From positions 1-38,586 of the forward strand of contig DYNA01000003.1 in the NCBI GenBank assembly GCA_020721325.1: a stretch of DNA of 38,586 nucleotides, written 5' to 3'. Under the pieces are notes generated by a model. It did no database searches. It saw only the letters and a program-made list of their open reading frames with translations, and was not told where the DNA came from. This DNA comes from Paludibacter propionicigenes (GTDB lineage Bacteria; Bacteroidota; Bacteroidia; Bacteroidales; JAIFNL01). Below, piece by piece: positions 22,354 through 37,411 of the stretch. Position 1 is the stretch's first letter. Each line of letters starts with the position of its first letter. A program made the position numbers and the translations under genes.

Positions 22354-24573
22354 GTGATGATGCATAGAAAACTCAAATTTATAAGTTTCTTTATTTTATT
22401 GGTATTTTTTACTAATTTTTTAACGATTGCTCAGCAGCTAAATTCGGAGCAAAAAGCAAAAGCCGACTCGCTCGATAATGCTGCAACCGATTTAATTTAT
22501 CAAGGCTTGTTCGATGGCGCAGTAGAAAATTTGTTTGAAGTAGGAAAAATTTATTACAAAGCAAAAAATTTAACAAAAGCGACCGAGTTTTTTGAAAAAG
22601 CAAAAAAATTGGGCAAAAATACCGGAAACAGCCAGCGACAAGTTAAAATAAACAATTATTTAACTCAAATTTACCACGACAACGGCGATTTTGAAAGTGC
22701 TTTGGGCATTTACAAAGACAATTTACTTTTCTACCAAAAAAATGGTCAGAAAAAAAATGAAGCCGAAGAAATGTTGAAGATTTCCGATGCTTTAGCAGCC
22801 ATCGAACGCACTCCCGAAGCCATTCAAAATGGCGAACAAGCCCTAAAAATTGCCGAACAAACCAAAGACTCGGCTCTGATTTTCGATTGTTTTTTAAACT
22901 TAGCCGACAATTATAAAAAGGTGAATAACGACGGCAAATATAAGTACTATATCAATCGTATTCAGCAATTTAACTATTCAAAATATAAAAATATTGACGT
23001 TTCGGCAGAAGACCCTGAAAAACTCCAAAGGCTCAAAGAATACAACCAACGCGAAAAACGCAAAAAAGCCGACCTTCTGGCGCAAATGGACTCACTTTCG
23101 AAAGCACGTGAAAAAACGCTTGCCGACACTCAAGAAGAAAGCGAGCTAAAAGATGCACGAATCAAGCAGCAAAATATTATTCGCAATTTTATCATTGCCA
23201 TATTATTTATTGTTTTTTTATTTTCCATTCTTTTCTTTTATCAAAATCAACAGCGAAAAAAAGCGAATATTTTGTTAGAAGCTCAAAATGTGGAGATTAA
23301 CAAACAAAAAATTGAACTCGAACGTCTTTCGATTGTAGCCAGTGGAACGGACAATGCGGTAATGATTATGGACGCCGAAGGCAATTTTGAATGGGTAAAT
23401 GAAAGCTATACGCGCCTTTTCGGAATGAGCCTCGACCAGTTGGTAAACACAAAAAGTAAAAATATTATCGGGCAAAACACACCGACTGATGTTAAAAATT
23501 TGATTTTGGAAGGAATAAAAGATAGAAAAACCGTAAGTTACAATCTAACCACGCAAACGCCTAAGGGCAAAAGCATTACGGTTCAAGCCACCATAACTCC
23601 CATACTCAATGCCGAAGGAAATATTAGCAAATTGATAGCCATCGACTCCGACATTACAAAAATAGTAGAAGCCGAAGCCGAAATCAAGCGACAAGCATTT
23701 GAAATTATGCAAAAATCGGAAGAATTGCAACTCATTAATCACCAATTAGACGCTCAAAATAAGCACATTACAGGCAGTATAACTTATGCACGCAACATTC
23801 AAAACGCCATAATGCCTTCAAAAGTAGAAATGAACCATTTCTTTGAAACATTTTTAATTTACAAACCCAAAGACATCGTTTCGGGCGATTTTGCATGGTT
23901 TTCAAAAATTGAAAAAAGCGAAAATCACAAAGCTTACTGTTTTGTTGCCATAGTCGATTGCACCGGACATGGAGTTCCCGGCGCATTTATGTCGATGATA
24001 GGCAGCCGATTACTCAACGAAATAGTAAACGAAAAACGAATTTTAGACCCTGCCGAAGTTCTCGAACTACTCAATTTAGGTGTTCAAACGGCTTTGCGCC
24101 AAAAAGATACCGATAACAATGACGGCATGGACGTTTGTTTGTGCAGGTTAGAAAACGTAGAAACACCCGAAAACTTAGACAAAAACAAAGGCGAAGACCG
24201 AAAAATTTTAGTAACCTTTTCGGGAGCAAAACGCCCATTATTTTATTTTAAAGAACAAGACGAAATAGAAACCATACGCGGCGATAGAAAATCCATTGGC
24301 GGAGTTCGTTCCAAACGCAGCTCAATCAATTTTACAAATACCGAATTACTTTTGAAAAAAGGTGATTTGCTTTATTTAACCACCGATGGAATGATAGACC
24401 AAAACGGCATAGACCGTAAACGTTTCGGTTCATCACGTTTTATTGAAGTTTTGGCACAAATGCGCCATTCCGACCTCGAACAGCAAGGGAAAGCTTTGGA
24501 AGAAGCATTGCGACAATACCAAGACAAAGAAGAACAACGCGATGATATAACGGTTATGGGAATTAGACTTTAA
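22354..24573 (+). CDS. Membrane TPR-PAS-PP2C (SpoIIE-type) protein phosphatase, SiaA/RsbU-like
   Basis: 739 aa; signal/TM N-terminus, TPR region, TM (FIIAILFIVFLFSILFFYQNQ), PAS (VASGTDNAVMIMDAEGNFEWVNESYTRLFGMS), SpoIIE phosphatase (KPKDIVSGDFAWF, AIVDCTGHGVPGAFMSMIGSRLLNEIV, LYLTTDGMIDQNG, DDITVMGIRL). Confidence 0.9.
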   Translation: MMMHRKLKFISFFILLVFFTNFLTIAQQLNSEQKAKADSLDNAATDLIYQGLFDGAVENLFEVGKIYYKAKNLTKATEFFEKAKKLGKNTGNSQRQVKINNYLTQIYHDNGDFESALGIYKDNLLFYQKNGQKKNEAEEMLKISDALAAIERTPEAIQNGEQALKIAEQTKDSALIFDCFLNLADNYKKVNNDGKYKYYINRIQQFNYSKYKNIDVSAEDPEKLQRLKEYNQREKRKKADLLAQMDSLSKAREKTLADTQEESELKDARIKQQNIIRNFIIAILFIVFLFSILFFYQNQQRKKANILLEAQNVEINKQKIELERLSIVASGTDNAVMIMDAEGNFEWVNESYTRLFGMSLDQLVNTKSKNIIGQNTPTDVKNLILEGIKDRKTVSYNLTTQTPKGKSITVQATITPILNAEGNISKLIAIDSDITKIVEAEAEIKRQAFEIMQKSEELQLINHQLDAQNKHITGSITYARNIQNAIMPSKVEMNHFFETFLIYKPKDIVSGDFAWFSKIEKSENHKAYCFVAIVDCTGHGVPGAFMSMIGSRLLNEIVNEKRILDPAEVLELLNLGVQTALRQKDTDNNDGMDVCLCRLENVETPENLDKNKGEDRKILVTFSGAKRPLFYFKEQDEIETIRGDRKSIGGVRSKRSSINFTNTELLLKKGDLLYLTTDGMIDQNGIDRKRFGSSRFIEVLAQMRHSDLEQQGKALEEALRQYQDKEEQRDDITVMGIRL

Positions 24574-24632
24574 TAACATGAAGAATTATTTTTGTAAAAA
24601 AAAAAAAATAAACCCTTTTTTTTTAAAATAAT

Positions 24633-24663
24633 TTTGTTGAATAAAAATTAAAGAATATATTTG
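24633..24663 (+). promoter_or_regulatory. Candidate Bacteroidota promoter upstream of siaB (-33 TTTG, N19, -7 TATATTTG)
   Basis: TTTG 24633-24636, 19-nt spacer, TATATTTG 24656-24663: exact match to TTTG-N19-TAnnTTTG. Confidence 0.7.
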
Positions 24664-24698
24664 CATTATAAAAAAGTTGAATATAAAAATATAGAAAA

Positions 24699-25265
24699 TT
24701 GGAAGCAAACCATTTGGAAAAAAAGCCACTCGAAACAAATAAATTTGACTTATTCAAATACCACAGTTTGTTTAATCAAAATGTCCAAATTTCGTATAAA
24801 GGACCTTTTGAAAGTAAAGTACTTTCTGTTTTAGGAAATTACATAAAATTTACCATAGGTAAAAATCCGAAAGCAAGCAAAAAAATATTCAATATTTTTA
24901 TAGAACTTGCTCAAAATATCGCACACTATTCAGCCGAAAAAAACCTTTTTGGCGTAGAAGAAGGTGTTGGGAGTTTGGTAATAGCCGAATACTCTGATTA
25001 TTACGCATTTTCAACGGGCAATATAGTAAAAAATGAAGACGTTATCGTTATAATTGAAAAGATAGAACTTATCAATTCGCTTGATAGAGAACAACTTAGA
25101 GAATATAAACGAGTTCAGCGCAATTTACCCCAACGCGAAAAAGGAAATGCCAACATTGGCTTAATTCAAGTAGCCCTAACTTCGGCAAATCCTTTGGACA
25201 TTGAAGTAACTTTAATAGACGACAAATATTCGTTTTTTGCCATAACCGTTAAAGTAGATAAGTAA
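24699..25265 (+). CDS. siaB: SiaB family protein kinase (TTG start in this call)
   Basis: 188 aa; NIFIELAQNIAHYSAEKN...GVGSLVIAEYSDYYAFSTGNIVKNEDV...NIGLIQVALTSANPLDIEVTLIDDKYSFFAI is typical of the SiaB/DUF6272 family; next to siaC. Confidence 0.82.
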   Translation: MEANHLEKKPLETNKFDLFKYHSLFNQNVQISYKGPFESKVLSVLGNYIKFTIGKNPKASKKIFNIFIELAQNIAHYSAEKNLFGVEEGVGSLVIAEYSDYYAFSTGNIVKNEDVIVIIEKIELINSLDREQLREYKRVQRNLPQREKGNANIGLIQVALTSANPLDIEVTLIDDKYSFFAITVKVDK

Positions 25266-25292
25266 AAAATAATCATTAAAATATTTTTTTAA

Positions 25293-25712
25293 ATGGAAAA
25301 TTTAATAGTTGAAGGTTCTCATGGAGTTTATTTTGTTCCATACGTAAATTTCAACGCCGAAACCGGTGAATGTGAGCTTGCCGGAGAGTCGTATTTAGAA
25401 GATACTGTATTGTTTTACAACCCATTGCTTGAATGGCTCGAAAACTATATCAATAAAAAACGAGAAGCCATAAAGTTTAACATAAAGCTAACTTATTTTA
25501 ATACAAGCTCTTCGCGTTGTTTGCTTGATATATTAAATTTACTCAAAGACTATGAAGACGAAGGCGGAGAAATAATAGTAAATTGGTATTACGACGAAGA
25601 AGATATGGACATGCAAGAAGAAATTGAAGACTACGAAATTGATACCGGACTTCATATTCATCTGATACCCGATGCCAATTTGGCAAAACACGAAGACGAA
25701 GAAATGGATTAA
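25293..25712 (+). CDS. siaC: SiaC family regulatory phosphoprotein (DUF1987)
   Basis: 139 aa; FNAETGECELAGESYLEDTVLFYNPLLEWLENYI...IKLTYFNTSSSRCLLDILNLLKDYEDEGGEIIVNWYYDEEDMDMQEEIEDY. Confidence 0.87.
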   Translation: MENLIVEGSHGVYFVPYVNFNAETGECELAGESYLEDTVLFYNPLLEWLENYINKKREAIKFNIKLTYFNTSSSRCLLDILNLLKDYEDEGGEIIVNWYYDEEDMDMQEEIEDYEIDTGLHIHLIPDANLAKHEDEEMD

Positions 25713-26006: not shown

Positions 26007-27293
26007 TTATTTATTTTTTACATCTGTTTCATTTTCATCTAAATATGCACTTGGATAAAGTAAATTTTTAGGAATAATTTTTAGCAGAAGCGGCAAAGTA
26101 ATAAAACTTCCGGGCAATAAAACGATTACAAGCATAGGAATGGTTTTTAAAATGTCCAAAATTTGCTTTTTCATTGTTTCACTTTCTTCGGCAGTTAAAT
26201 CGCTTTTTACCGATTTTGTTAGCAAAGCCATCAATTCTTTGCTTTCGCTAAACTCCTTACCCAATTTCTTTTTGTTATTTTCAATTGTTTTTTTCAAACT
26301 GCCAATAAATCGGTTGCTTACCAATTCGAAGCTTTTTTTTCCTTGCAGATAAGGTACTCGTTGCCAATTGTTTAGCACAAAAGATTCTACAGCCATTAGA
26401 CTATCGTTCAATTCTTCTTGCGAAAGCCCCAATTTATGGGTTAAATCGCGCAAAAATTTCAGTTCATAAGCCTCTACATCTTTGTCTGCCCAAACGGCTA
26501 TAACGGCTATTTCTAAAATGTATTTCTTTAATAACCAAGAAGATATATTGTTCAAATGAATATTTGACAATTTGGGCGGATAATGTAAATATTCTTTGGC
26601 TATTTCATAATTTTCTTTAGAAAGTTTAGAAGATTGCAAAATGAGATTGTAAAACTGAATTTCATTTTCTTCGAGTTTATTATCGGCATTTATGGCTATC
26701 GAAATGATTTGCAAAATAATCATAAAAACATTTTCGCGCTCTTCTTTTATCGCAGCATTTATTTTTAAGTTCTTATTTCTGAGCCAGATAGAGAAATAAA
26801 TTATGTCCACAAACAACAAACTGTTCAGAAAAAAACTTGCCCAAAAATTATCGAACGAAGTACGAAGCGAAAGCTGTTTTTCAATAAAATTTTCTACTTT
26901 TTTTGTCTGATTACTTTTTTTGTAAAACAAATTGTAAAAAATACTTCCTGAAAATTCGGGAAATAAAAATTTGTAAAAATGTTTTATTTCGTCAAGCATT
27001 TGTTTCTGGCTAAGTTCCGATTTATCAAAGAGTTTACTGCAAAGCAGCAAACTTTCGGTCATCGAAAGCTTGATTAGCTCTTGACTGGATAGCTCTTCAA
27101 TTTTTGGAGTTTTTATTTCGGGCAAATACAATGGATGTCCGTAGATAAAGCCCGTGGGCTGTATCATTTCGTACAACAAAATTTCATCGGTATCAACTGC
27201 ACTTCTACTAATTTTCAGTTCATTAGGAGTTTCAGCTATGTATTTGTCTCTGTTTTTTAAATATTTATCTAACCAACCTTTATCACTATACAT
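26007..27293 (-). CDS. TerB-like / LETM1-related protein (resembles 'LETM1-related biofilm-associated protein')
   Basis: 428 aa; two acidic helical segments (IISIAINADNKLEENEIQFYNLILQSSKL; AVIAVWADKDVEAYELKFLRDLTHKLGL) like TerB repeats; C-terminal LKTIPMLVIVLLPGSFITLPLLLKIIPKNLLYPSAY like the LETM1 domain. Confidence 0.75.
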   Translation of the reverse strand: MYSDKGWLDKYLKNRDKYIAETPNELKISRSAVDTDEILLYEMIQPTGFIYGHPLYLPEIKTPKIEELSSQELIKLSMTESLLLCSKLFDKSELSQKQMLDEIKHFYKFLFPEFSGSIFYNLFYKKSNQTKKVENFIEKQLSLRTSFDNFWASFFLNSLLFVDIIYFSIWLRNKNLKINAAIKEERENVFMIILQIISIAINADNKLEENEIQFYNLILQSSKLSKENYEIAKEYLHYPPKLSNIHLNNISSWLLKKYILEIAVIAVWADKDVEAYELKFLRDLTHKLGLSQEELNDSLMAVESFVLNNWQRVPYLQGKKSFELVSNRFIGSLKKTIENNKKKLGKEFSESKELMALLTKSVKSDLTAEESETMKKQILDILKTIPMLVIVLLPGSFITLPLLLKIIPKNLLYPSAYLDENETDVKNK

Positions 27294-27305
27294 ATTTGAA
27301 AAATT

Positions 27306-29333
27306 TTAATATTGAATTTGAATTTTGGGCAAAAGTAATGCTATTTTTTCACGTTCTTCTGTATTAATTGGATTATTTTTTAGAACCAAATAAACCAAAT
27401 TATTTAAGTTTATAATTTCTTGTGGAAGAGTTTCTAATTTGTTGCCTTCGAGATACAACGTTAGAAGGCTTTGTTGCTGAACAATTTCAGTTGGCAAAAC
27501 TTCCATATTATTATTTTCTAAATATAAATTTTCCAAAGCAAAATTTGCATTGAGCAATTCGATGGTTTTTGAAAAATTAAGATTTTTACAAGCATTTAAT
27601 TTTAAGGTTTTTAGCTGTTTCATTTTATACAAAATTTCCGGCAATTCGGTTATAGTAGAATCGGAAAGTTCAAAAATAGTCAATCCTTTTAAATTGAGGA
27701 ATTCTTTCGACACATCGCTAAAAAATTTTCCATGAATTAAAAGGGAGCTTAAATTTGTCGCTTTTTTTAATTTTAGAATTGATGAATTTAGATGTTCGAT
27801 ACTGCTGGTTTGCAATTTTACAACCAATAAGTTTTCATATTTCAAATTTGCTTTTGGAAATTGTGCAAATGTAAAATCGTCTATGTACAAAACCAAGAGT
27901 TTGTTGAAAATACGTAGTTCGTTTGAAAAGCTATTTATTTGATTATTAGATATATCCAAGTAAGTTAGCGAAGGCAAAAAGCTTAATATTTCCGGAAAAT
28001 GAACGAAATGGTTGTAGCTCAAATCCAAATTGCTTAGCTTTGGAAGCCGCGCAAATTCAAGGAAAAGTTCGGATATTTTATTGTTCGATAAATTCAAATG
28101 ACTTAAACTGTTGAGTTGCGAAAGGGAATTTGGAATAGTGGAAATTTGATTTTTACTGATATTGAGAAAACGCAATTCTTGAAAATTTCCAAAATTTTCA
28201 GGTAAATTTTGTATCCTGTTTTTTTCTAAATTTAACCGAAATAGTTTTGACAGATTTTCAAAATTATTGGGCAATTCAACCAATTTATTTTCTGAAATAT
28301 CTAAATGTGTTAATTCTGCAAGCATTGAAAAATACATCGGTAACCTGCTAATGAGATTGTTAGACAAATTCAATGTTTTTAAATTCACTAAATTGGCAAA
28401 AGATTCAGGTAAAACTTCTATTTTATTATAGCTTAAATCGAGATATTTTAAAAGAGTTAAATTTGAAATTGCTTCTGGTAAATTTTCTATTTTGCAATTA
28501 CTCAAATCTAAATAGTTCAGTTTTGTAAGCTCAAAAACTTCTTTAAGTTCTTTATTATCAATGGATTTTGTAATTTTAATTCCGGTCAGAGCATTCCAAT
28601 ATTCTTTGGGAATGCTATCGAGTGTGCTAACGCTTATTTTTATTTCCGATAAATTTTTTAATTCTTTTAGTTTTGAAAAAGCATCGTCCCAATCAATAAT
28701 TTCTGTTCCTATCAAATTGATACTCAGTAAGTTTTTGCATTTACTCACTTCTATCGGAAGACGAACTATTTCGGTATAAGACAAATTCAAGCTATCAATT
28801 TCCAAATAATTCAAACGTCCGTATTCGTTGTAAATATTTTTTCGCTTAGCTATTTCGCGTGTAACTTTATCAAAAACAGCCGTTTCCATTTTTGTTTGCA
28901 TTTTATTAGCCAGTTTGAGTGCTTTATTGAGCAAAGCCAAAGATTTCTCTTTCTCCTTCAAATTCAGCAACATAGCTTCATTGGCAATTGCCTCTTTTTC
29001 GCGAGCTTTTTGCAATTGCAAAAGGGCTTCTTGAGCTTGAATTTTAGCTTTTTCGGCTTCTTCAAGAGCCAAATTGCGTGCTTCTTGGTCTTGCCTAATT
29101 TTAATTCGGCATTTTTCTTTCCATTCAGAAAGTTCAGTTTTTTGAGCTTCGCTTTGCGCAAAATGCTCTTTTATCATATCAAATTGTTCAAATGCGTCCA
29201 AATAATTTCCTGTAAAATATTCTTTTTTGGCGTTTTCAAAATATTTATTGTAATCTTTTTCCGTAAATTGAGCGGTTGCAAGTTGAACTAAAAATATAAA
29301 TACTAAAAATAATATACTTTTTTTTGCTTTCAT
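27306..29333 (-). CDS. Signal-peptide leucine-rich-repeat protein with N-terminal helical/coiled-coil region
   Basis: 675 aa; MKAKKSILFLVFIFLVQLATAQ signal peptide; TPR-like/coiled-coil aa ~25-170; many 23-residue LRRs (LKYLDLSYNKIEVLPESFANLVNLKTLNLSNNLISRLP...). Confidence 0.9.
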   Translation of the reverse strand: MKAKKSILFLVFIFLVQLATAQFTEKDYNKYFENAKKEYFTGNYLDAFEQFDMIKEHFAQSEAQKTELSEWKEKCRIKIRQDQEARNLALEEAEKAKIQAQEALLQLQKAREKEAIANEAMLLNLKEKEKSLALLNKALKLANKMQTKMETAVFDKVTREIAKRKNIYNEYGRLNYLEIDSLNLSYTEIVRLPIEVSKCKNLLSINLIGTEIIDWDDAFSKLKELKNLSEIKISVSTLDSIPKEYWNALTGIKITKSIDNKELKEVFELTKLNYLDLSNCKIENLPEAISNLTLLKYLDLSYNKIEVLPESFANLVNLKTLNLSNNLISRLPMYFSMLAELTHLDISENKLVELPNNFENLSKLFRLNLEKNRIQNLPENFGNFQELRFLNISKNQISTIPNSLSQLNSLSHLNLSNNKISELFLEFARLPKLSNLDLSYNHFVHFPEILSFLPSLTYLDISNNQINSFSNELRIFNKLLVLYIDDFTFAQFPKANLKYENLLVVKLQTSSIEHLNSSILKLKKATNLSSLLIHGKFFSDVSKEFLNLKGLTIFELSDSTITELPEILYKMKQLKTLKLNACKNLNFSKTIELLNANFALENLYLENNNMEVLPTEIVQQQSLLTLYLEGNKLETLPQEIINLNNLVYLVLKNNPINTEEREKIALLLPKIQIQY

Positions 29334-29360
29334 TTTTTTCTATTTTTTTTACAAAAAAAA

Positions 29361-32348
29361 TTAAAAATATTCTTTCGAAATTCGTTCCAACGTATCGGCT
29401 TTCGCTTTATAGAAGCGTTGTTCGTTGAATAATCTGATTTCTCCCATTTTTTGAGCTGCTTTTTTACAATCTCTAATAGCTTTTCCGGCATAGTCTTTAA
29501 TGGTTTGTCTGATAAATTTGGATTTATAGTTTAGTTTTTCGGCTTTTTTTAATTCCAAAATTCCACCTATAAAATCTCCGTTCAAATAAAGTTCTATCCC
29601 TTTATTAAAATGTGCATCAAATTCATCTTTTTGTTTTAAAATATTCTCACATTTTTTTATTTTTTCTTTCAATTTTTTTTCATTTTTAAAACGCAAAGCA
29701 TCTTTATAATTTACAATTGCCTCAGAATAAGACTCTTGCTCGTAAAATTCTTCAGCTAAATTTAGATATTTTGTATATTGTTCATTTTCAAGCTTTTTGA
29801 GCGTATTGTTGGCATTATTGCGCTGTGAGATGCCGTAAATGCCAAAAGCAAGAGCAAAAATGGACGCCAAAGTTACAAAAATTAGCGAAATTCGTTGGCG
29901 TTGAGCGGCTTTTTCGGCGGCTTCGGTCTTTTGTCGTTCCAAGAAAATCAGTCGTCTTTGCTGTTCTTTTTCTTTGGTTTCGGCAGCCAATTGGGCTTTT
30001 TTACCCGCCGTGATGTATTCAATTTGTAATTCGGTTGGAGCAGGAACTTTCGGATTTTTCTTGTCCGCCGTACTTTCATTGAGCCACGATTCGGCAAGTA
30101 GTAACTCTTTGCCTCTCAGTAGATTACCCTCTTCTCGATTGTTCGATTCCCACAAAAGAGCTTCCTGCGAGTAGCGCGTATGCTTTTGAACGTAATCGCG
30201 GTCGGTATCGATGGTTCTAAGTAGCTCACTATAAGCCGAATGATAATCTGTTTTTTCAAAATCAATCCATTGAACTTTAGCCAAAGCCTCCGGTATTTTT
30301 TTAAGGTCAGTTTTGCTGAGTAAAATAGTGATAATTCGCTTATTATTCATTCGCGCATGCTCTACTTCCCCTTTGCAATAAGGTGAATCGATGGAATCAG
30401 GTGAAATAATAAATAAAAAGTTATCCGATATTTCAATTCCTTTAAAAATTTCTTTTTGAAAATTGGTACTCGAAGCAATACTTTCTTGGTCAAACCAAGT
30501 TGTTTTACCCGACATTTGCAAATCGTCGTTCAATCTACGCGCAAAATCGCTGTCCACGCGCGAATACGAAATGAAAACTTCCGAACGCAACATTCCCGAT
30601 TTTGCTTCGCTTTCGCCAATGTAGTCGCGGTGAATTTTCGAGGGTTTCGTGCGCTTTGTCAAACCAATTTTGAGCCAAGCCCGCGCCGCTTCTAAATTAT
30701 GACCGCGCAATAAAATACTCGGATTTCGCTTTTGGCGTTCCCATTTTAGAGCTTGAACCAAATAAATTTTATGTTGCTCAAAATAAGCACGTTGGTCGCT
30801 TAAAACCATAATTATCGAATCAATTCCCTTTTGAAAAGGCGATTTTTCTTTGCGAGAATTAACATCGGCTTCCACGTCTGCATGCGATTGAATATCAATG
30901 GATACTTTTTCTCTGCGGTCGATAAATTCAATGTATTCTATTCGGCGCAAGCTCGCTGGCAAAAGGTTTACATCTAATTGCTCCAAAAGAACCGAAACAA
31001 TTCTCTTTTTAAGTTTTACGGCATGTTGTAACTCTGTAATACAATATTGCGAAAGCAAAGAAGCTTGTGAGATGAGAAAAACAAAATAAGTAGCTTCTTC
31101 TATACCTTTTTCAACCACTTTTTCAAAACTTTGACCATGTTTCATGTCAATGTGGTCGCTCCAAGTAGTAAAATAATTCAAATGCAGCAAATTCTGAATT
31201 TTTTCTTTCACCTCCAAATCGCTTTTTTCATACGAAAAAAACACATCGGTCATTAAATTTTCGGCATTTTTTCGCGATTCGCAAATGTATTCGGCATGTA
31301 AATTCGTTGGAAAAGCAGGCTGTTGAATTTCAATACCTTTTTTATTTTTAAAAGTTTTTTTCAAAAGCCATTGTTCTGCTATTTTTCGCTCGGTTCCTAC
31401 CAATAAATAATTGGTTCTTTTCTGCGCCGATTCCCAACGAAGGGCTTTGTCTAAAATAAGTGTATGTTGCTGAATATAATCCTTTTGCTCATCTATCAAG
31501 TTGGTTAAACCCTCAAAAGCTTTGTCAAAATTATCCAATTGCAGCCATTCCGATAGCGCAACATTAAAATCTTCTTGCTCTCTAAAATAAATCCAATTTA
31601 ATTTTTCAATCTCCGGATGCATCTCATTCCAGCAATCCTTCGGTTCAACATGCAAAATTGGAATAATCCGCTTGTTGTATTTCAAAGCCAAAACCACTTC
31701 TTTCAAACAATAAATCGATTTTACCGAGTGTGGAGAAATTATAAAAACAAAATCATTTGCCCTGCGAATGCCATCGTCTATTTGTTGCTGAAAATCAACA
31801 CCTAACGGAATATCATTTTGGTCGAACCAAACCTTATAACCTCTATCAACCAAGCGGTTATGCAATTTGGTTGCAAAATGCAAACTGTGCCGCCTGCCAT
31901 AAGAAATGAAAACATCGTTGATGACACTCTCATCATAAAACAAACTATTTTGACGCTTGTTTGCCGAATTTAAAAACTGGATTACTTCTTCTAAAGTATT
32001 TTTTTTAATTGCCCCATTTGCCGTTACTATCCTGCCAATTTCTTCTAATTCAATAATTTGAGCTTTTGAAAATTCTTTGTCGTCATCTTTGGGCAAATAA
32101 CAAAAAATAGTTCTGTCGGGTTTTTTGTACGAATCGTCCACTACTTCGGCTATCGAATACCAACCAATCATTTTAGGCGAAATTACATAAAGGCAAAATT
32201 CACAATGCTCACGCTCGTAGATTTCGCGCTCTTGGTCGGCGGGCGTCCATTCTGCAACCACCGGATTAAAATAATCAACTTCCAGTTTTGGCATCATTTC
32301 ATCGCGCCAAGTAGAACCGGCAACTGTACCTCCAAGAAAAACTTTCAT
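29361..32348 (-). CDS. Multidomain protein: nucleoside 2-deoxyribosyltransferase-like domain + three tandem TIR-linker units + TM + TPR-like C-terminus
   Basis: 995 aa; aa 1-130 MKVFLGGTVAGSTWRDEMMPKLEVDYFNPVVAEW...LYVISPKMIGWYSIAEVV; TIR starts at DVFISY (aa 145), DVFFSY (aa 368), EVFISY (aa 590) with SIYCLKE217, SQYCITE439, SPYCKGE661; TM ISLIFVTLASIFALAFGIYGI (aa 820-840); TPR-like C-terminus. Confidence 0.9.
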   Translation of the reverse strand: MKVFLGGTVAGSTWRDEMMPKLEVDYFNPVVAEWTPADQEREIYEREHCEFCLYVISPKMIGWYSIAEVVDDSYKKPDRTIFCYLPKDDDKEFSKAQIIELEEIGRIVTANGAIKKNTLEEVIQFLNSANKRQNSLFYDESVINDVFISYGRRHSLHFATKLHNRLVDRGYKVWFDQNDIPLGVDFQQQIDDGIRRANDFVFIISPHSVKSIYCLKEVVLALKYNKRIIPILHVEPKDCWNEMHPEIEKLNWIYFREQEDFNVALSEWLQLDNFDKAFEGLTNLIDEQKDYIQQHTLILDKALRWESAQKRTNYLLVGTERKIAEQWLLKKTFKNKKGIEIQQPAFPTNLHAEYICESRKNAENLMTDVFFSYEKSDLEVKEKIQNLLHLNYFTTWSDHIDMKHGQSFEKVVEKGIEEATYFVFLISQASLLSQYCITELQHAVKLKKRIVSVLLEQLDVNLLPASLRRIEYIEFIDRREKVSIDIQSHADVEADVNSRKEKSPFQKGIDSIIMVLSDQRAYFEQHKIYLVQALKWERQKRNPSILLRGHNLEAARAWLKIGLTKRTKPSKIHRDYIGESEAKSGMLRSEVFISYSRVDSDFARRLNDDLQMSGKTTWFDQESIASSTNFQKEIFKGIEISDNFLFIISPDSIDSPYCKGEVEHARMNNKRIITILLSKTDLKKIPEALAKVQWIDFEKTDYHSAYSELLRTIDTDRDYVQKHTRYSQEALLWESNNREEGNLLRGKELLLAESWLNESTADKKNPKVPAPTELQIEYITAGKKAQLAAETKEKEQQRRLIFLERQKTEAAEKAAQRQRISLIFVTLASIFALAFGIYGISQRNNANNTLKKLENEQYTKYLNLAEEFYEQESYSEAIVNYKDALRFKNEKKLKEKIKKCENILKQKDEFDAHFNKGIELYLNGDFIGGILELKKAEKLNYKSKFIRQTIKDYAGKAIRDCKKAAQKMGEIRLFNEQRFYKAKADTLERISKEYF

Positions 32349-33104
32349 TAAATTAGTTGCTTTGAGTTTAATTCTTTTATTTTTCTATAATAAAAAATTT
32401 CTTACTTTCGTAAAAAAAAAAAAAGATTTTTCTGTTCTTTTTTTATTTTATAATTCATAAATCTTTTTTTTAATTCATTGAAATACAAAATTATAAAACA
32501 CCTTACAAAAACTGCTTAATTTTTGTTAATCAATTATTTGCAAGTTTTCAAATTTTTTAAATGATATGAATTACATATTTATTTAAAAATTAATTTTAAA
32601 AATGTAAATATAGTAAATTATTCATTTTTTTCAAAATTTTTATATGAAATTAATTAAGTTTTTTTTAGAAAGAAAGAATTTTTTTATTTTATTTTATTAA
32701 AATATTGAAAATCAATATATAACATTTCTAAAAAAAATAAAAATCGTATAAAAAAAATCAATTCCAACTATTCAATCCATTTTCAATATATTTTTTAGTA
32801 AAAAAAAGACTATAATTTGCCGGAAAATTTTTATTTGGTCTAATTTTTGAAATTTTATAATAAAAGCCCAATGTGAAAGATTTGACAGAATAAAATAAGC
32901 GATTACTTTTTTTTTAAAATATTGAATTTTAACTTTTAAATGCTTTTTTTGTCTTATTTAAAGAATAGAAAAATTCAATAAAGTAATAAATAATTATAAA
33001 AACTTAATAAAAAATTACTTTATTTTACTATTTTATTTTTTTATTTTCTTTCAAAATTTCTTTTGCCAATGATTTATAATTAATATTCTTAATTTCATTG
33101 TTTT

Positions 33105-34790
33105 ATGAAAAAAAAATATCTATTTTCAATTGTATTTCTTTTTTTTGGCTTAAACCAAATAAATTTTGCTCAAAACAGTACTGCATTCAAAGGTCATTTA
33201 AAATCAATTAATTGCATCGAAATTAGCAACGATGGAGAAATACTAATTACAGCTTCAGACGACAAAACCATTCGTCTGTGGAATGCCAACGATGGAAAAC
33301 GTATCTGCACATTGAAAGGACACGAACAAGGAGTTACCTGCTTGGCTATCAGCCAGAACACTCAATATCTTCTTTCAGGTTCTAAAGACGGAAGCATTAA
33401 ATTATGGGATATTTTGCAACAAAAAGAAATTAGAACTTTTAAAGGACACAATGCCGAAGTTAAAAGTATTGTATTTTTTGATAATTCTGAAAATTTTATT
33501 TCCGGCGATGTTAATGGAACTCTTCAATATTGGAAAACGAACAAATCAAAAAGTTTAGAAACCATAGAAGCCCACAAAAACTCTATCAATCAGATAGTTA
33601 TAAGCCCCGATTTAAAGTATTTTCTTACCGCGTCTTCTGATAACAGCATCAAAATTTGGAATAAAAATTCTTTGAAAGTTTATAGAAATTATAGTATTGA
33701 CAATCAATTGATTAACTCGTTGGCTTTTACTTCCGATTCTCGCAATTTTTATTCGGCTGCATCTGACGGAACTGTGAAAATTTGGAGAATAAATTCATCT
33801 AAACATCTGAATACCATTGAAATCCATCAATTAGCAATCAATTCCATTCAGCTTAGTTCCGACGATAGATATTTATTTACTGCCTCCGACGATGGTACTA
33901 TAAAAACTACCGATTTAATTTCGCATGAAACTATTTTCACATATCATTCGCCCTATTTTGATGAACTTAAATCGCTGAAATTAAGCCCAAATCAAAAATT
34001 TTTATTTTTTACCAATTCTCAAAATATTCCACAGAAAATAAATGTTCAAACCGAAAAAAAAATTGCAAATGATTATAATTCAAATACTTGGGTTGTAATA
34101 GTTGGTATTACGGAATATCAGTATCGCCAGCCTTCAAAATACTCCGGCAACGATGCACTTCGTATTTACGGATTTTATAAAAGTCCTCAAGGTGGAGCAT
34201 TGAATGAACAGAAAATCAAGGTATTAACAAATCATCAAGCCGACGATAAATCCATTCTGCGTGCTATTGATGAAACTTTTTCGCAAGCCACTGATAGCGA
34301 CATAGTTATATTCTATTTTTCGGGTCATGGCGAAAACGAAGGTTTAGTGCCTTACAATGCAAACGATTTTAATAAAAATTTAAGTTATGAAATTTTAATA
34401 CATGCCATTGAAAAAAGTAAAGCTAAACATAAGATTTGCTTTATAGATGCTTGTTATTCAGGTAGTTTATCAGATGCTAATTATTTTACAAAAAAACAAG
34501 TCGAAAAATATTCAGAAAGCAAAAATTTTGCCTTTTTACTTTCTTCTAAAGCCGAAGAACAAGCTCTGGGTTATAGAAATTTGAATCAAGGTATTTTTAG
34601 CTATTTTTTGCTTGAAGGATTAAATGGAAATGCTAATTTAAACAGCGACAATTGTATAAACATCACTGAACTTTTTAATTATGTAGAGTATAAAGTGAAA
34701 AACTATACCGCAAATAATCAAAATCCGTTATTAATTGGAAATTTTGATGAAAATTTGCGCGTAAGTTTCATATTTAACACCGAAAATTAA
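33105..34790 (+). CDS. Exported seven-bladed WD40 repeat + caspase-like (peptidase C14 / metacaspase-type) protein
   Basis: 561 aa; signal peptide MKKKYLFSIVFLFFGLNQINFAQ; WD repeats ending in IRLW, IKLW, LQYW, IKIW, VKIW; caspase motifs WVVIVGITEYQ, VIFYFSGHGENEG (His), ICFIDACYSGSLSD (Cys). Confidence 0.92.
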   Translation: MKKKYLFSIVFLFFGLNQINFAQNSTAFKGHLKSINCIEISNDGEILITASDDKTIRLWNANDGKRICTLKGHEQGVTCLAISQNTQYLLSGSKDGSIKLWDILQQKEIRTFKGHNAEVKSIVFFDNSENFISGDVNGTLQYWKTNKSKSLETIEAHKNSINQIVISPDLKYFLTASSDNSIKIWNKNSLKVYRNYSIDNQLINSLAFTSDSRNFYSAASDGTVKIWRINSSKHLNTIEIHQLAINSIQLSSDDRYLFTASDDGTIKTTDLISHETIFTYHSPYFDELKSLKLSPNQKFLFFTNSQNIPQKINVQTEKKIANDYNSNTWVVIVGITEYQYRQPSKYSGNDALRIYGFYKSPQGGALNEQKIKVLTNHQADDKSILRAIDETFSQATDSDIVIFYFSGHGENEGLVPYNANDFNKNLSYEILIHAIEKSKAKHKICFIDACYSGSLSDANYFTKKQVEKYSESKNFAFLLSSKAEEQALGYRNLNQGIFSYFLLEGLNGNANLNSDNCINITELFNYVEYKVKNYTANNQNPLLIGNFDENLRVSFIFNTEN

Positions 34791-34796
34791 AAAAAA

Positions 34797-36473
34797 TTAC
34801 TTTTTATTCAATAAAAATAGATTGTTTTCACTCAAACAGACAATTCCACTTGAAGTATGGTACAATTTAGAGTGCATTGAAACCAATTCAGACTTAATTG
34901 TTGAAATAATTTCAAAATCGGGCAATCGTCTTATCAATATTTCATTGTCGGCAGCTTCATAAATAAAACCCAAATGGTTGCTTTTTTGAAATGCAAAATG
35001 CACAAAATCAGATAATTCAATATGGTCAATTAATTCAAATTGTAAACCGTTTATCTGAAAATATTTATTGATAACTTGTTTATTTTCAATGTATTGTACA
35101 ACTCCAATTTTACCAGATTGCTTTATTTTTTTTGGAATGATTGGCATTTTAACATTAGCTAAATTAGAACCGGTATCGTAAAATAAGCGATAAGTACCAC
35201 CGGTATTTTGAATAAAATTAGGAATTGAGAAAATATTTTCGCTAAAAATTTCAGTTCGTTTAACTTTTAAATTATTGTTATACAATGAATTAAGTTCAAT
35301 TGTGTACATCTGATTGCTTCCTATGCTTAGCAGAGTATTTCCATATTGAATTGACTTTTCATATTCTGGAAATTCAAAGTTTATTATTTCTAAAGCAGTA
35401 TTATTTCTTTCAATTTTATATAATTTTTTATCTTTTTTTGCAAAAAAGTAATTTTCTGATAAAAATATATTTTCAAAGTCTATTTTTTTTAATGTACAAA
35501 AATCATGTAATTGTCCTTTCTCGTTGGCACTAAAAAGAATAAAATTTTCAGTGGTTTCTGCATAGCCCTTGTTGCTAATAAATTCAATATCAATTATTTC
35601 GGTATGATTTAAAAATTGCTTAATAAATAAATTTGCATCGTTTAAAATGTTAACTATTTGTTTTTTAACAGTTTGAACTTGAAAATTGTCATTCAAATTT
35701 AGTAGAAACCTTTCTCCAAAAACAAAAATTCGTTCAAATAGATTTTGTAAATTTTTCCAAATAATTGGAGTATAAACTTTGGGTTTAATTATATCGGTAG
35801 CAAAAATTGGTATTTTTAAAATCATTCTATCTTGCATTTTTTTTATTGTTGCTGAAATTCCTTTGTATGGGTGTGCAAAAGTAAACAGGTAAAACACTTG
35901 TACTGCCAAAGCAAAATAATCGCTCTGTACAGAAACTATACCTTGATACAAATAATCTCGGATTTCTTCGAGCAAACGTCCTGAATGTGGAACATTTGGA
36001 ATTTGGTACGAATCGGTATCAATACATTTTAAAGTTCCGTTGAGATTGAAAAGAATGTTAAATTGATTGAAATCGCCAATTACAATATTCTCATTATGAG
36101 CTATTTTAATAGATTCAACCAGTTGTCGGGCTATTTTTAGTTTAAAATCGAGCGTTAAATTGAATTTGTCGCAGAAATTTTTGTTAAATAAATTGGAAAT
36201 TGGCAAATAATCGCTCGAAAGATATTCCATTGAAAACCCAACTATTTTATTATCAGCGGAATAAAATAATTCTTCAGGTATGACAAAAATTTGAGAAGGC
36301 AACTTTTTTAAATACCAAAAAACTTCTTCTGTTATACCATTTATTCCTTTGTGGTAAATTTTAACTACTTTGTTGTTATCAAATTTTATAATAGCTCCTT
36401 CTCCACCTCGTTGAATTTCAAGGTTTTCGTCTATTTGTATTGCTTTTTTGTTTTTAGTGTAAACGGTTATCAT
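34797..36473 (-). CDS. Ser/Thr protein kinase-like domain with C-terminal beta-propeller-like region
   Basis: 558 aa; RGGEGAIIKFDNNKVVKIYHK (Gly loop + Lys), NIVIGDFNQFNILFNLNGTLKCIDTDSYQ (catalytic D/N and DTD), QSDYFALAVQVFYLFTFAHPYKG; C-terminal half beta-rich and repetitive. Confidence 0.82.
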   Translation of the reverse strand: MITVYTKNKKAIQIDENLEIQRGGEGAIIKFDNNKVVKIYHKGINGITEEVFWYLKKLPSQIFVIPEELFYSADNKIVGFSMEYLSSDYLPISNLFNKNFCDKFNLTLDFKLKIARQLVESIKIAHNENIVIGDFNQFNILFNLNGTLKCIDTDSYQIPNVPHSGRLLEEIRDYLYQGIVSVQSDYFALAVQVFYLFTFAHPYKGISATIKKMQDRMILKIPIFATDIIKPKVYTPIIWKNLQNLFERIFVFGERFLLNLNDNFQVQTVKKQIVNILNDANLFIKQFLNHTEIIDIEFISNKGYAETTENFILFSANEKGQLHDFCTLKKIDFENIFLSENYFFAKKDKKLYKIERNNTALEIINFEFPEYEKSIQYGNTLLSIGSNQMYTIELNSLYNNNLKVKRTEIFSENIFSIPNFIQNTGGTYRLFYDTGSNLANVKMPIIPKKIKQSGKIGVVQYIENKQVINKYFQINGLQFELIDHIELSDFVHFAFQKSNHLGFIYEAADNEILIRRLPDFEIISTIKSELVSMHSKLYHTSSGIVCLSENNLFLLNKK

Positions 36474-36499
36474 TTTTTTTGAAAATATTATTTTTTACG

Positions 36500-37411
36500 T
36501 TAAAATAAATCAGCTATCAATTCATAATTTTTTATAGCATAAGCTAATTCGGGAGTTTCTTTCTTAAATAATTCATACATAGCCATTTGATTGGTTTTTT
36601 CCATTTTTACTTTTGAAACTACTCTTAAATTAACTGTTGTATAATGCTTATTTTCAATGGATTTTGAAAATATAACTTCCGACATTTTATTATTTGGATT
36701 AAAAATACCATTTAGTTTGATTTTTTTTTCTGAAAAATTTTTTTCCCATAAAGGCATAGAATAGCCAAAATGAGTGCAATTTAGACTAATTGATAAATTA
36801 TTTTTATCCACTATTTCATTTAAAATTTCTGATATATATTTATCAATCGCATCGTTAGATTCTTTCCCATAAGGATTTTTTTCAATAATCGATTGTAAAT
36901 TTGGGCAAGCTTTATTATAAACTTGTTCACTTTTTATTCCTTTTTGAATTAACTTTTGTTTGTGCAAATTAGATGAAATCGTTGTTTCGGTGGCAAATAT
37001 AATTACTTTATTATCAGGGTTTTTAATTAAAAAATCATACATTTCTTGAACTCCAAAATCGACGATTTCAATTACCGGAAAATTTATTTTTTTTGAAAAT
37101 TCTGTTTCGTGATACAAAACCGATAGTGTATTGCAGGCTATTAAAATAATATCAGGCTTAAAATTTTTTTCCATTCCGAAAAGTGCTTTATTGAAAATTT
37201 CAATTTTTAAGCTCTTGTTTTTCAATTTATTATAACCAGAATTAATATCAAATAAAGCATCAGCAAAAATTAAATCAATGTGACTATATTTTTTTATAAC
37301 TTTCGCTTTTTTCAAAATATCTTCAACTACTGATAAACCGCCTAAACCTGAGTCTGTTACAACAATTCTAATATAATTATTTGTTTTCATGCAAATTGCT
37401 TTTTTTTCCAA
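36500..37411 (-). CDS. Glutamate racemase-like (Asp/Glu racemase superfamily) protein
   Basis: 303 aa; IRIVVTDSGLGGLSVVEDIL, DIILIACNTLSVLYHET, SLNCTHFGYSMPLW: the two catalytic-cysteine motifs are present but divergent from MurI. Confidence 0.75.
   Translation of the reverse strand: MEKKAICMKTNNYIRIVVTDSGLGGLSVVEDILKKAKVIKKYSHIDLIFADALFDINSGYNKLKNKSLKIEIFNKALFGMEKNFKPDIILIACNTLSVLYHETEFSKKINFPVIEIVDFGVQEMYDFLIKNPDNKVIIFATETTISSNLHKQKLIQKGIKSEQVYNKACPNLQSIIEKNPYGKESNDAIDKYISEILNEIVDKNNLSISLNCTHFGYSMPLWEKNFSEKKIKLNGIFNPNNKMSEVIFSKSIENKHYTTVNLRVVSKVKMEKTNQMAMYELFKKETPELAYAIKNYELIADLF

What the first reader, a model, noticed from the sequence alone, without database searches (positions are those of the whole stretch)
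29361..32348. NDT-like + triple tandem TIR + TM + TPR protein with near-exact 222-residue internal repeats
The 995-aa protein contains three complete TIR domains. Each is followed by the same linker, of the form HTxxxxxALxWExxxxxxxLLxGxxLxxAExWL...Y(I): QHTLILDKALRWESAQKRTNYLLVGTERKIAEQWLL, QHKIYLVQALKWERQKRNPSILLRGHNLEAARAWLK, KHTRYSQEALLWESNNREEGNLLRGKELLLAESWLN. The putative catalytic glutamates fall at aa 217, 439 and 661, exactly 222 residues apart, so the whole TIR-linker unit was triplicated and every copy keeps its glutamate. The N-terminus adds a nucleoside-deoxyribosyltransferase-like domain, another nucleotide/N-glycosidic-bond fold. The chain then crosses the membrane once and ends in a TPR-like domain. 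Intramolecular TIR assembly could replace the filament formation other TIR NADases need.
Basis: partly seen in the sequence, partly recalled or inferred. Interest (0 to 1): 0.85.

Follow-up and report, generated by a model that had tools for sequence, protein, structure and literature searches.

The report
Membrane receptor with tandem TIR enzymes
A Bacteroidota protein carries three related but unequal TIR (NAD-cleaving immune) domains behind a second nucleotide-enzyme domain on the predicted inner side of the membrane, and is encoded next to an exported leucine-rich-repeat protein that relatives fuse to its outer side, so it looks like a bacterial counterpart, in layout only, of animal Toll-like receptors.

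Summary
Glutamates 217/439/661 are exactly 222 apart, but the copies are only 30-40% identical, so 'near-exact repeats' is wrong.

The triplication is old: in relatives the first, second and third units form three separate clades, five-unit arrays read 1-2-1-2-3, and unit 3 always borders the membrane. TIR1 alone is strongly constrained (65% mean identity versus 39% and 49%; SxYCxxE motif 26/26 versus 16/27 and 14/24), suggesting one working enzyme plus two helper TIRs.

Context points to a transmembrane receptor. The next gene encodes an exported LRR protein; in two relatives LRRs are fused behind the TM of NDT-TIR3. The same TM-TPR tail occurs in five nSTAND1 proteins, each followed by an exported LRR or WD40 protein and preceded by SIR2-like or TIR genes. 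Stand-alone NDT genes sit beside SLATT membrane-effector genes in 8 of 13 cases.

Best reading: an envelope-sensing conflict receptor, LRR/TPR outside, TIR/NDT inside, acting on NAD+. No activity was measured. I found no description of this architecture. New variant of TIR conflict systems.

The parts
29361..32348 (-). NDT-TIR1-TIR2-TIR3-TM-TPR receptor protein, 995 aa
   Evidence: ORF; Pfam; 75% full-length orthologues in two same-genus genomes
31959..32348 (-). NDT-like (Nuc_deoxyri_tr2) domain, aa 1-130; conserved GGT, WR, candidate nucleophile E68, N111
   Evidence: Pfam PF15891 31.8 bits; alignment of 11 relatives
31578..31922 (-). TIR1, aa 143-257, candidate catalytic Glu217 (codon 31698-31700); the constrained copy
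   Evidence: TIR_2; motif intact in 26/26; AF2 of TIR1+linker pLDDT 89.9; Foldseek to SARM1, SPARTA, AbTir
31278..31526 (-). helical linker 1, aa 275-357 (H..L...A..W...LL.G....A..WL)
30915..31253 (-). TIR2, aa 366-478, Glu439 (codon 31032-31034); diverged copy
30609..30851 (-). helical linker 2, aa 500-580
30255..30587 (-). TIR3, aa 588-698, Glu661 (codon 30366-30368); membrane-proximal copy
30009..30251 (-). helical linker 3, aa 700-780
29829..29885 (-). single transmembrane helix, aa 822-840; K/R-rich on its N side
   Evidence: hydropathy; N-side K/R exceeds C-side in 24 of 25 family members, p 1.5e-6, sequences related
29364..29813 (-). TPR-like tail, aa 846-995, predicted extracytoplasmic
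   Evidence: sub-threshold TPR; homologous to the tails of five nSTAND1-TM-TPR proteins
27306..29333 (-). exported LRR protein, predicted sensor partner; starts 27 nt after the TIR gene
   Evidence: LRR Pfams; signal-peptide-like N terminus, also in orthologues; colinear with the post-TM part of a fused homologue L118, E 4e-44
26007..27293 (-). LETM1-like/TerB-like protein, third gene of the apparent operon (12 nt gap)
   Evidence: NF040639 220 bits, below cut-off 250; syntenic in two genomes
33105..34790 (+). exported WD40-caspase-like protein, divergently transcribed neighbour
   Evidence: WD40 and Peptidase_C14; signal-peptide-like N terminus; syntenic
34797..36473 (-). protein-kinase-like protein, member of the conserved block
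   Evidence: weak Pkinase 22.7 bits, below cut-off; syntenic
36500..37411 (-). glutamate-racemase-like protein, member of the conserved block
   Evidence: Asp_Glu_race 41.8 bits; syntenic

Best explanation
It is a transmembrane immune-type (conflict) receptor. SHOWN by sequence: NDT + three TIR-linker units, one TM, TPR-like tail, next to a gene for an LRR protein with a signal-peptide-like N terminus. INFERRED: the TIRs and NDT lie in the cytosol; the TPR tail and the LRR partner meet outside the inner membrane and sense an envelope insult such as a phage, foreign molecule or damage. Sensing clusters or re-arranges the receptors. TIR1, the one TIR kept catalytically intact throughout the family, then cleaves NAD+. 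TIR2 and TIR3 are built-in neighbours that complete or restrain the TIR assembly, TIR3 always at the membrane. The NDT domain, a relative of TIRs, works on the same nucleotide/NAD-derivative pathway; its stand-alone versions sit beside SLATT membrane effectors. The result would be NAD+ loss or an ADP-ribose-type signal leading to growth arrest or death of the cell.
For: TIR fold and closeness of TIR1 to NAD-cleaving TIRs. TIR1 SxYCxxE motif 26/26, TIR2 16/27, TIR3 14/24; TIR-core mean identity 65/39/49% while linkers are about 39% in all three; invariant TIR columns 27/4/4. Position-specific clades and 1-2-1-2-3 order in five-unit arrays. TM about 10-80 aa after the last unit, N-in by charge in 24/25. 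LRR Rosetta stone: L118 = NDT-TIR3-TM-LRR colinear with the window's LRR protein; L117 likewise ends in LRRs. Same TM-TPR tail in five nSTAND1-TM-TPR proteins, each followed by an exported LRR (4) or WD40-Ank (1) gene and preceded by SIR2-like or TIR genes. Other relatives carry WD40, FGE-sulfatase, LamG or TPR after the TM. Block of six genes conserved in three genomes, window flanks differing. Conservation versus the L110 orthologue falls from TIR1 93% through NDT 82%, TIR3 70%, TPR tail 58% to LRR partner 51%, as for a fixed effector with a fast-changing sensor. SLATT-NDT pairs.
Against: No NADase activity, topology, binding or phage protection was measured. The window's three TIRs all keep their glutamates, so TIR2/TIR3 could be active here. 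The LRR could be released rather than bound to the receptor. The NDT domain carries E instead of the usual D at position 50. No full-length match to a catalogued defence system. The neighbours include a LETM1-related 'biofilm-associated' family, compatible with a non-immune role. The positive-inside margin in the window protein itself is small (5 vs 4 K/R).
Confidence: 0.6

Rival explanations
1. One reading: three equivalent active TIR NADases in one chain that pre-assemble a TIR filament, needing no oligomer partner.
For: All three glutamates present in the window protein; every occurrence of this linker in the order sampled is in arrays of three or more, apart from broken fragments.
Against: Family-wide, TIR2 and TIR3 lose the intact motif in 21 of 51 units and drift faster; TIR1 never loses it. 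The triplication is ancient, with distinct clades. The AF2 domain arrangement is unreliable (pTM 0.31).
Confidence: 0.15
2. A membrane-anchored regulator of development, surface growth or cell-envelope stress, not immunity; TIR/NDT produce a metabolite signal for housekeeping control.
For: Neighbour resembles a LETM1-related biofilm-associated family; the six-gene block is conserved in the genus; stand-alone NDT next to NadD or MgsA in some genomes.
Against: Patchy distribution (13 of 395 order genomes, 1 of 399 phylum genomes, the window's own included), plasmid carriage in other Bacteroidota and a cyanobacterium, swapping with nSTAND1/SIR2/CHAT/EAD7 modules.
Confidence: 0.2
3. All TIRs and NDT act as catalytically silent scaffolds or ligand sensors; another protein (for example the WD40-caspase) is the effector.
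For: TIR2/TIR3 decay in relatives; some TIR assemblies are scaffolds (PMC8635717); an exported caspase-like gene is adjacent and syntenic.
Against: TIR1 is the most conserved domain (93% to the orthologue, 27 invariant TIR columns) and keeps the full SxYCxxE motif in 26/26. The caspase-like protein appears exported, on the other side of the membrane.
Confidence: 0.12

Closest known systems
TIR-domain NADases of bacterial conflict systems (Thoeris ThsB, SPARTA TIR-APAZ, Cat1, TIR-SAVED; SARM1 in animals)
   Same: TIR fold, SxxSxYCxxE catalytic-Glu motif, best sequence and structure matches.
   Different: As far as I know these carry one TIR per chain and assemble through a separate domain or ligand; here three position-specific TIRs per chain, membrane-anchored, fused to an NDT-like domain.
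nSTAND1-centred conflict systems with SIR2/TIR/CHAT effectors (Kaur/Burroughs/Aravind class, PMC7159879, PMC8195603)
   Same: The same TM-TPR tail followed by an exported LRR/WD40 gene.
   Different: The window protein has no STAND NTPase; the TIR array itself is attached to the TM-TPR tail.
Animal Toll-like receptors (LRR ectodomain - TM - cytosolic TIR)
   Same: Predicted layout: LRR outside, one TM, TIR inside; a single chain in L117/L118.
   Different: Reverse domain order, three TIRs, an NDT domain, and a two-gene split in the window; no evidence of common descent as a receptor, so this is resemblance of layout only.
DrHyd/NDT and SLATT systems (TIR-DrHyd-SLOG class, PMC9503650)
   Same: NDT-like domain; stand-alone NDT genes beside SLATT in 8 of 13 cases; the literature places TIR/DrHyd as NAD-derivative makers and SLATT as a membrane effector.
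   Different: Fusion of this domain to a TIR array was not found in the papers searched.

Membership tests
TIR domain (PF13676 TIR_2) | profile score above the curated cut-off | tested here: met
   244 bits whole protein, cut-off 28; three stretches; each unit above cut-off alone
TIR NADase | catalytic Glu in the SxxSx[WYF]CxxE region | tested here: met
   E217, E439, E661 in the window; 26/26 TIR1s, partly lost in TIR2/TIR3
TIR NADase | NAD+ cleavage | not testable with these tools
   needs an enzyme assay
Nuc_deoxyri_tr2 / NDT-like (PF15891) | profile score above cut-off | tested here: met
   31.8 vs 30 bits, marginal; stand-alone relative 36.2 bits
Nuc_deoxyri_tr2 / NDT-like (PF15891) | active-site acidic residues kept | tested here: inconclusive
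   E68 kept in all but one of 11 aligned sequences, N111 invariant; position 50 is E in the window and D in most others; assignment to known NDT residues is from general knowledge
TPR repeat | Pfam TPR above cut-off | tested here: not met
   TPR_11 16.4 bits vs 26.8; helical in AF2
Thoeris | ThsA (SIR2-SLOG or other) partner gene next to ThsB TIR | tested here: not met
   no ThsA model match among the window neighbours scanned
nSTAND conflict system | STAND NTPase domain | tested here: not met
   no nSTAND match in the window protein; only the TM-TPR tail is shared
Toll-like receptor layout | LRR outside, TM, TIR inside | tested here: inconclusive
   predicted from charge bias and signal-peptide-like N termini and LRR fusions; not measured

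The most novel reading that the evidence does not exclude
A bacterial receptor with the working layout of a Toll-like receptor (extracytoplasmic LRR sensor, one membrane helix, cytosolic TIRs) in which the TIR signalosome is built into one chain with a fixed order: one enzyme TIR (T1), one partner TIR (T2), one membrane-proximal base TIR (T3), extendable as T1-T2 pairs, and coupled to an NDT enzyme and a SLATT pore as a second output.
Probability: 0.3. Interest if true: 0.9.

Novelty: new variant of a known kind. Interest (0 to 1): 0.7.

Why it matters
Known TIR enzymes need an oligomer to form their active site, and how many TIRs suffice and which contacts matter is hard to dissect. A natural chain with three ordered, unequal TIRs would let this be tested one domain at a time. 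If the predicted topology holds, it would also be a bacterial receptor with LRR outside and TIR inside, a layout known from animal Toll-like receptors that I did not find described for bacteria in the papers searched.

Tried and rejected
Recent triplication: rejected by the unit trees. Linker as an nSTAND1 module: only a weak partial match in one nSTAND1 protein (11 bits, E 7e-4 in a 49-sequence search) and not seen in the nSTAND1-TM-TPR proteins read; not claimed. Linker as a known fold: the PDB hits to the TIR1+linker model are TIR-domain structures and none of the ranks shown is a separate linker hit. Full-length AF2 to judge TIR-TIR packing: pTM 0.31 with five rows, not used for arrangement. 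Viral origin: no relative confirmed in viral contigs; in the phage collection the listed matches cover only the NDT domain. PHROGs had no NDT match. Papers on tandem/triple TIR, TIR+NDT, TIR+LRR+periplasm, SLATT+NDT gave no description of this architecture. L029 ('Thalassovita' MAG) is nearly identical to a Chondrinema plasmid copy in the unit tree and is probably a mis-binned Bacteroidota contig.

Full report
CHECK OF THE OBSERVATION. The ORF at 29361-32348 is on the minus strand and encodes 995 aa. Pfam finds TIR_2 three times and Nuc_deoxyri_tr2 just above its cut-off; TPR is sub-threshold. Glu217, Glu439 and Glu661 are exactly 222 apart. The units are only 30-40% identical and the linker spacing is 231 and 197, so these are diverged repeats and the equal spacing comes from cancelling indels. 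The gene is not an assembly artefact: two same-genus genomes carry 75% identical full-length orthologues.

FAMILY. Relatives were read from whole genomes of the same order, from Cytophagales and from plasmids. The common core is [NDT] - (TIR + helical linker) x3 - TM - variable tail. The fused NDT is present in the window, L026, L027, L030-L032, L062-L068 and L116-L118. It is absent in Flexithrix, Chondrinema, Bernardetia, the cyanobacterium Kovacikia, L035 and L069. L034 and L119 have a separate NDT ORF directly before the array, overlapping it by 4 nt in L034 and 27 nt away in L119. Two arrays have five units (L036, L119); L033 has three good units plus degenerate pieces; a Tolypothrix plasmid protein has a single unit. 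In 199 genomes of the order the linker never occurs singly except in short or broken frames of one genome. The array family is rare: 13 of 395 order genomes and 1 of 399 phylum genomes, the window's own included.

UNEQUAL TIRs. A tree of 54 units from the three-unit proteins puts all first, all second and all third units in one clade each (support 100/100, 98/92, 99/86). With 84 units including the larger arrays and the single-unit protein as outgroup, five-unit L036 reads 1-2-1-2-3, and L119's units 2-5 read 2-1-2-3 (its first unit is degenerate and was left out); the last unit, next to the TM, is always of class 3. In non-redundant sets TIR1 cores have 65% mean pairwise identity, TIR2 39%, TIR3 49%, while the linkers are equal (38-40%). 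The motif S-x-[YFW]-C-x-x-E is intact in 26/26 TIR1, 16/27 TIR2 and 14/24 TIR3; the glutamate itself is lost in 0, 2 and 2. I infer one enzyme TIR and two partner TIRs. In the window protein all three glutamates are present, so activity of TIR2 and TIR3 here stays open.

STRUCTURE. AF2 of TIR1+linker with 15 rows is confident (pLDDT 89.9, pTM 0.87) and shows a TIR fold with a following helical bundle. Its best PDB matches are SPARTA, SARM1, RUN1 and AbTir TIRs. The full-length model (pLDDT 64, pTM 0.31) supports TIR folds but says nothing reliable about their packing. The TIR assembly literature (PMC8635717) describes head-to-tail contacts needed to form the NAD site, which is the basis of the built-in-assembly idea; I did not test it.

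OTHER SIDE OF THE MEMBRANE. The array proteins read have a hydrophobic segment after the last unit, except two truncated ones (L064, L065); K/R is higher on its N side in 24 of 25, so the N-terminal part should be cytosolic. The next gene in the window (27306-29333, 27 nt after the TIR stop) encodes an LRR protein whose N terminus looks like a signal peptide, as in its orthologues. In L118 an LRR domain follows the TM of an NDT-TIR3 chain and is colinear with residues 140-436 of the window's LRR protein (E 4e-44); L117 likewise ends in LRRs. Other relatives end in WD40, FGE-sulfatase, LamG or TPR. Outside TIR arrays the TM-TPR tail occurs in five proteins of the order sample, all nSTAND1-TM-TPR. 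Each is followed by an exported LRR gene (L039, L164, L165, L166) or WD40-ankyrin gene (L167; ankyrin and WD40 read by eye) and preceded by a SIR2-like gene (L039, L164, L165, L166) or a TIR gene (L167). The SIR2-like call passes the Pfam cut-off in L165 and L166, is marginal in L164, and in L039 rests on 48% identity to L165. L039 also has a CHAT gene and L166's SIR2-like protein carries EAD7. So TM-TPR + exported repeat protein is a receptor cassette, and in the window NDT-TIR3 stands where nSTAND1 usually stands.

NDT LINK. Stand-alone NDT genes have a SLATT gene immediately upstream in 8 of 13 cases; NadD or MgsA genes are further neighbours in several. Of 199 genomes, 11 have NDT, 11 have TIR arrays and 9 have both (Fisher p 2.6e-12, partly because of the fusions). 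Published work groups TIR, DrHyd and SLOG as NAD-derivative makers or binders and SLATT as a membrane effector (PMC9503650; PMC7159879). Whether the fused NDT is an enzyme on the TIR product or a binder of it is open.

LOCUS. Six genes (26007-37411) are syntenic in G001 and G002, while genes on the window's flanks are not found beside the block there. Identity to the G001 orthologue falls from TIR1 93%, linker2 90%, NDT 82%, TIR2 78%, TIR3 70% to TPR tail 58% and LRR partner 51%, as expected of a fixed effector with a fast-changing sensor.

VERDICT. Most likely a membrane-spanning NAD-targeting conflict receptor, a new variant of TIR conflict systems. What would lift it further is a measured topology and a demonstration that TIR1 alone is the enzyme within a three-TIR built-in assembly. 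PADLOC and NCBIfam give only partial TIR matches for the protein, and the papers searched do not describe it.

Noticed in passing
L037:4833-6624; L123, L124, L126, L127, L131, L132, L134, L137: Stand-alone NDT-like genes directly downstream of SLATT genes, often followed by NadD or MgsA; looks like a small two-gene conflict module with no PADLOC match.
   Followed up: partly
L039:2-6216: Operon CHAT - SIR2-like - nSTAND1-TM-TPR - exported LRR in the same genus; apparently an uncatalogued receptor system, with relatives at L164-L167.
   Followed up: partly
window 33105-34790: WD40 protein with a C-terminal caspase-like domain (SGHG and DACYSG motifs) and a signal-peptide-like N terminus, i.e. 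a possibly extracytoplasmic caspase; divergent from the TIR gene and syntenic in two genomes.
   Followed up: partly
G071 (L066, L067, L116, L117, L118, L126, L148, L149): One genome holds at least five NDT-TIR3 paralogues with different tails (LRR, FGE-sulfatase, LamG) plus broken copies, suggesting a diversifying receptor family.
   Followed up: partly
window 22354-25712: SpoIIE-phosphatase, DUF6272 and SiaC-like genes in a row, a Sia-type partner-switch signalling cluster.
   Followed up: no
L029: Contig labelled Thalassovita (Alphaproteobacteria) carries a triple-TIR gene nearly identical to one on a Chondrinema plasmid; probably mis-binned.
   Followed up: partly
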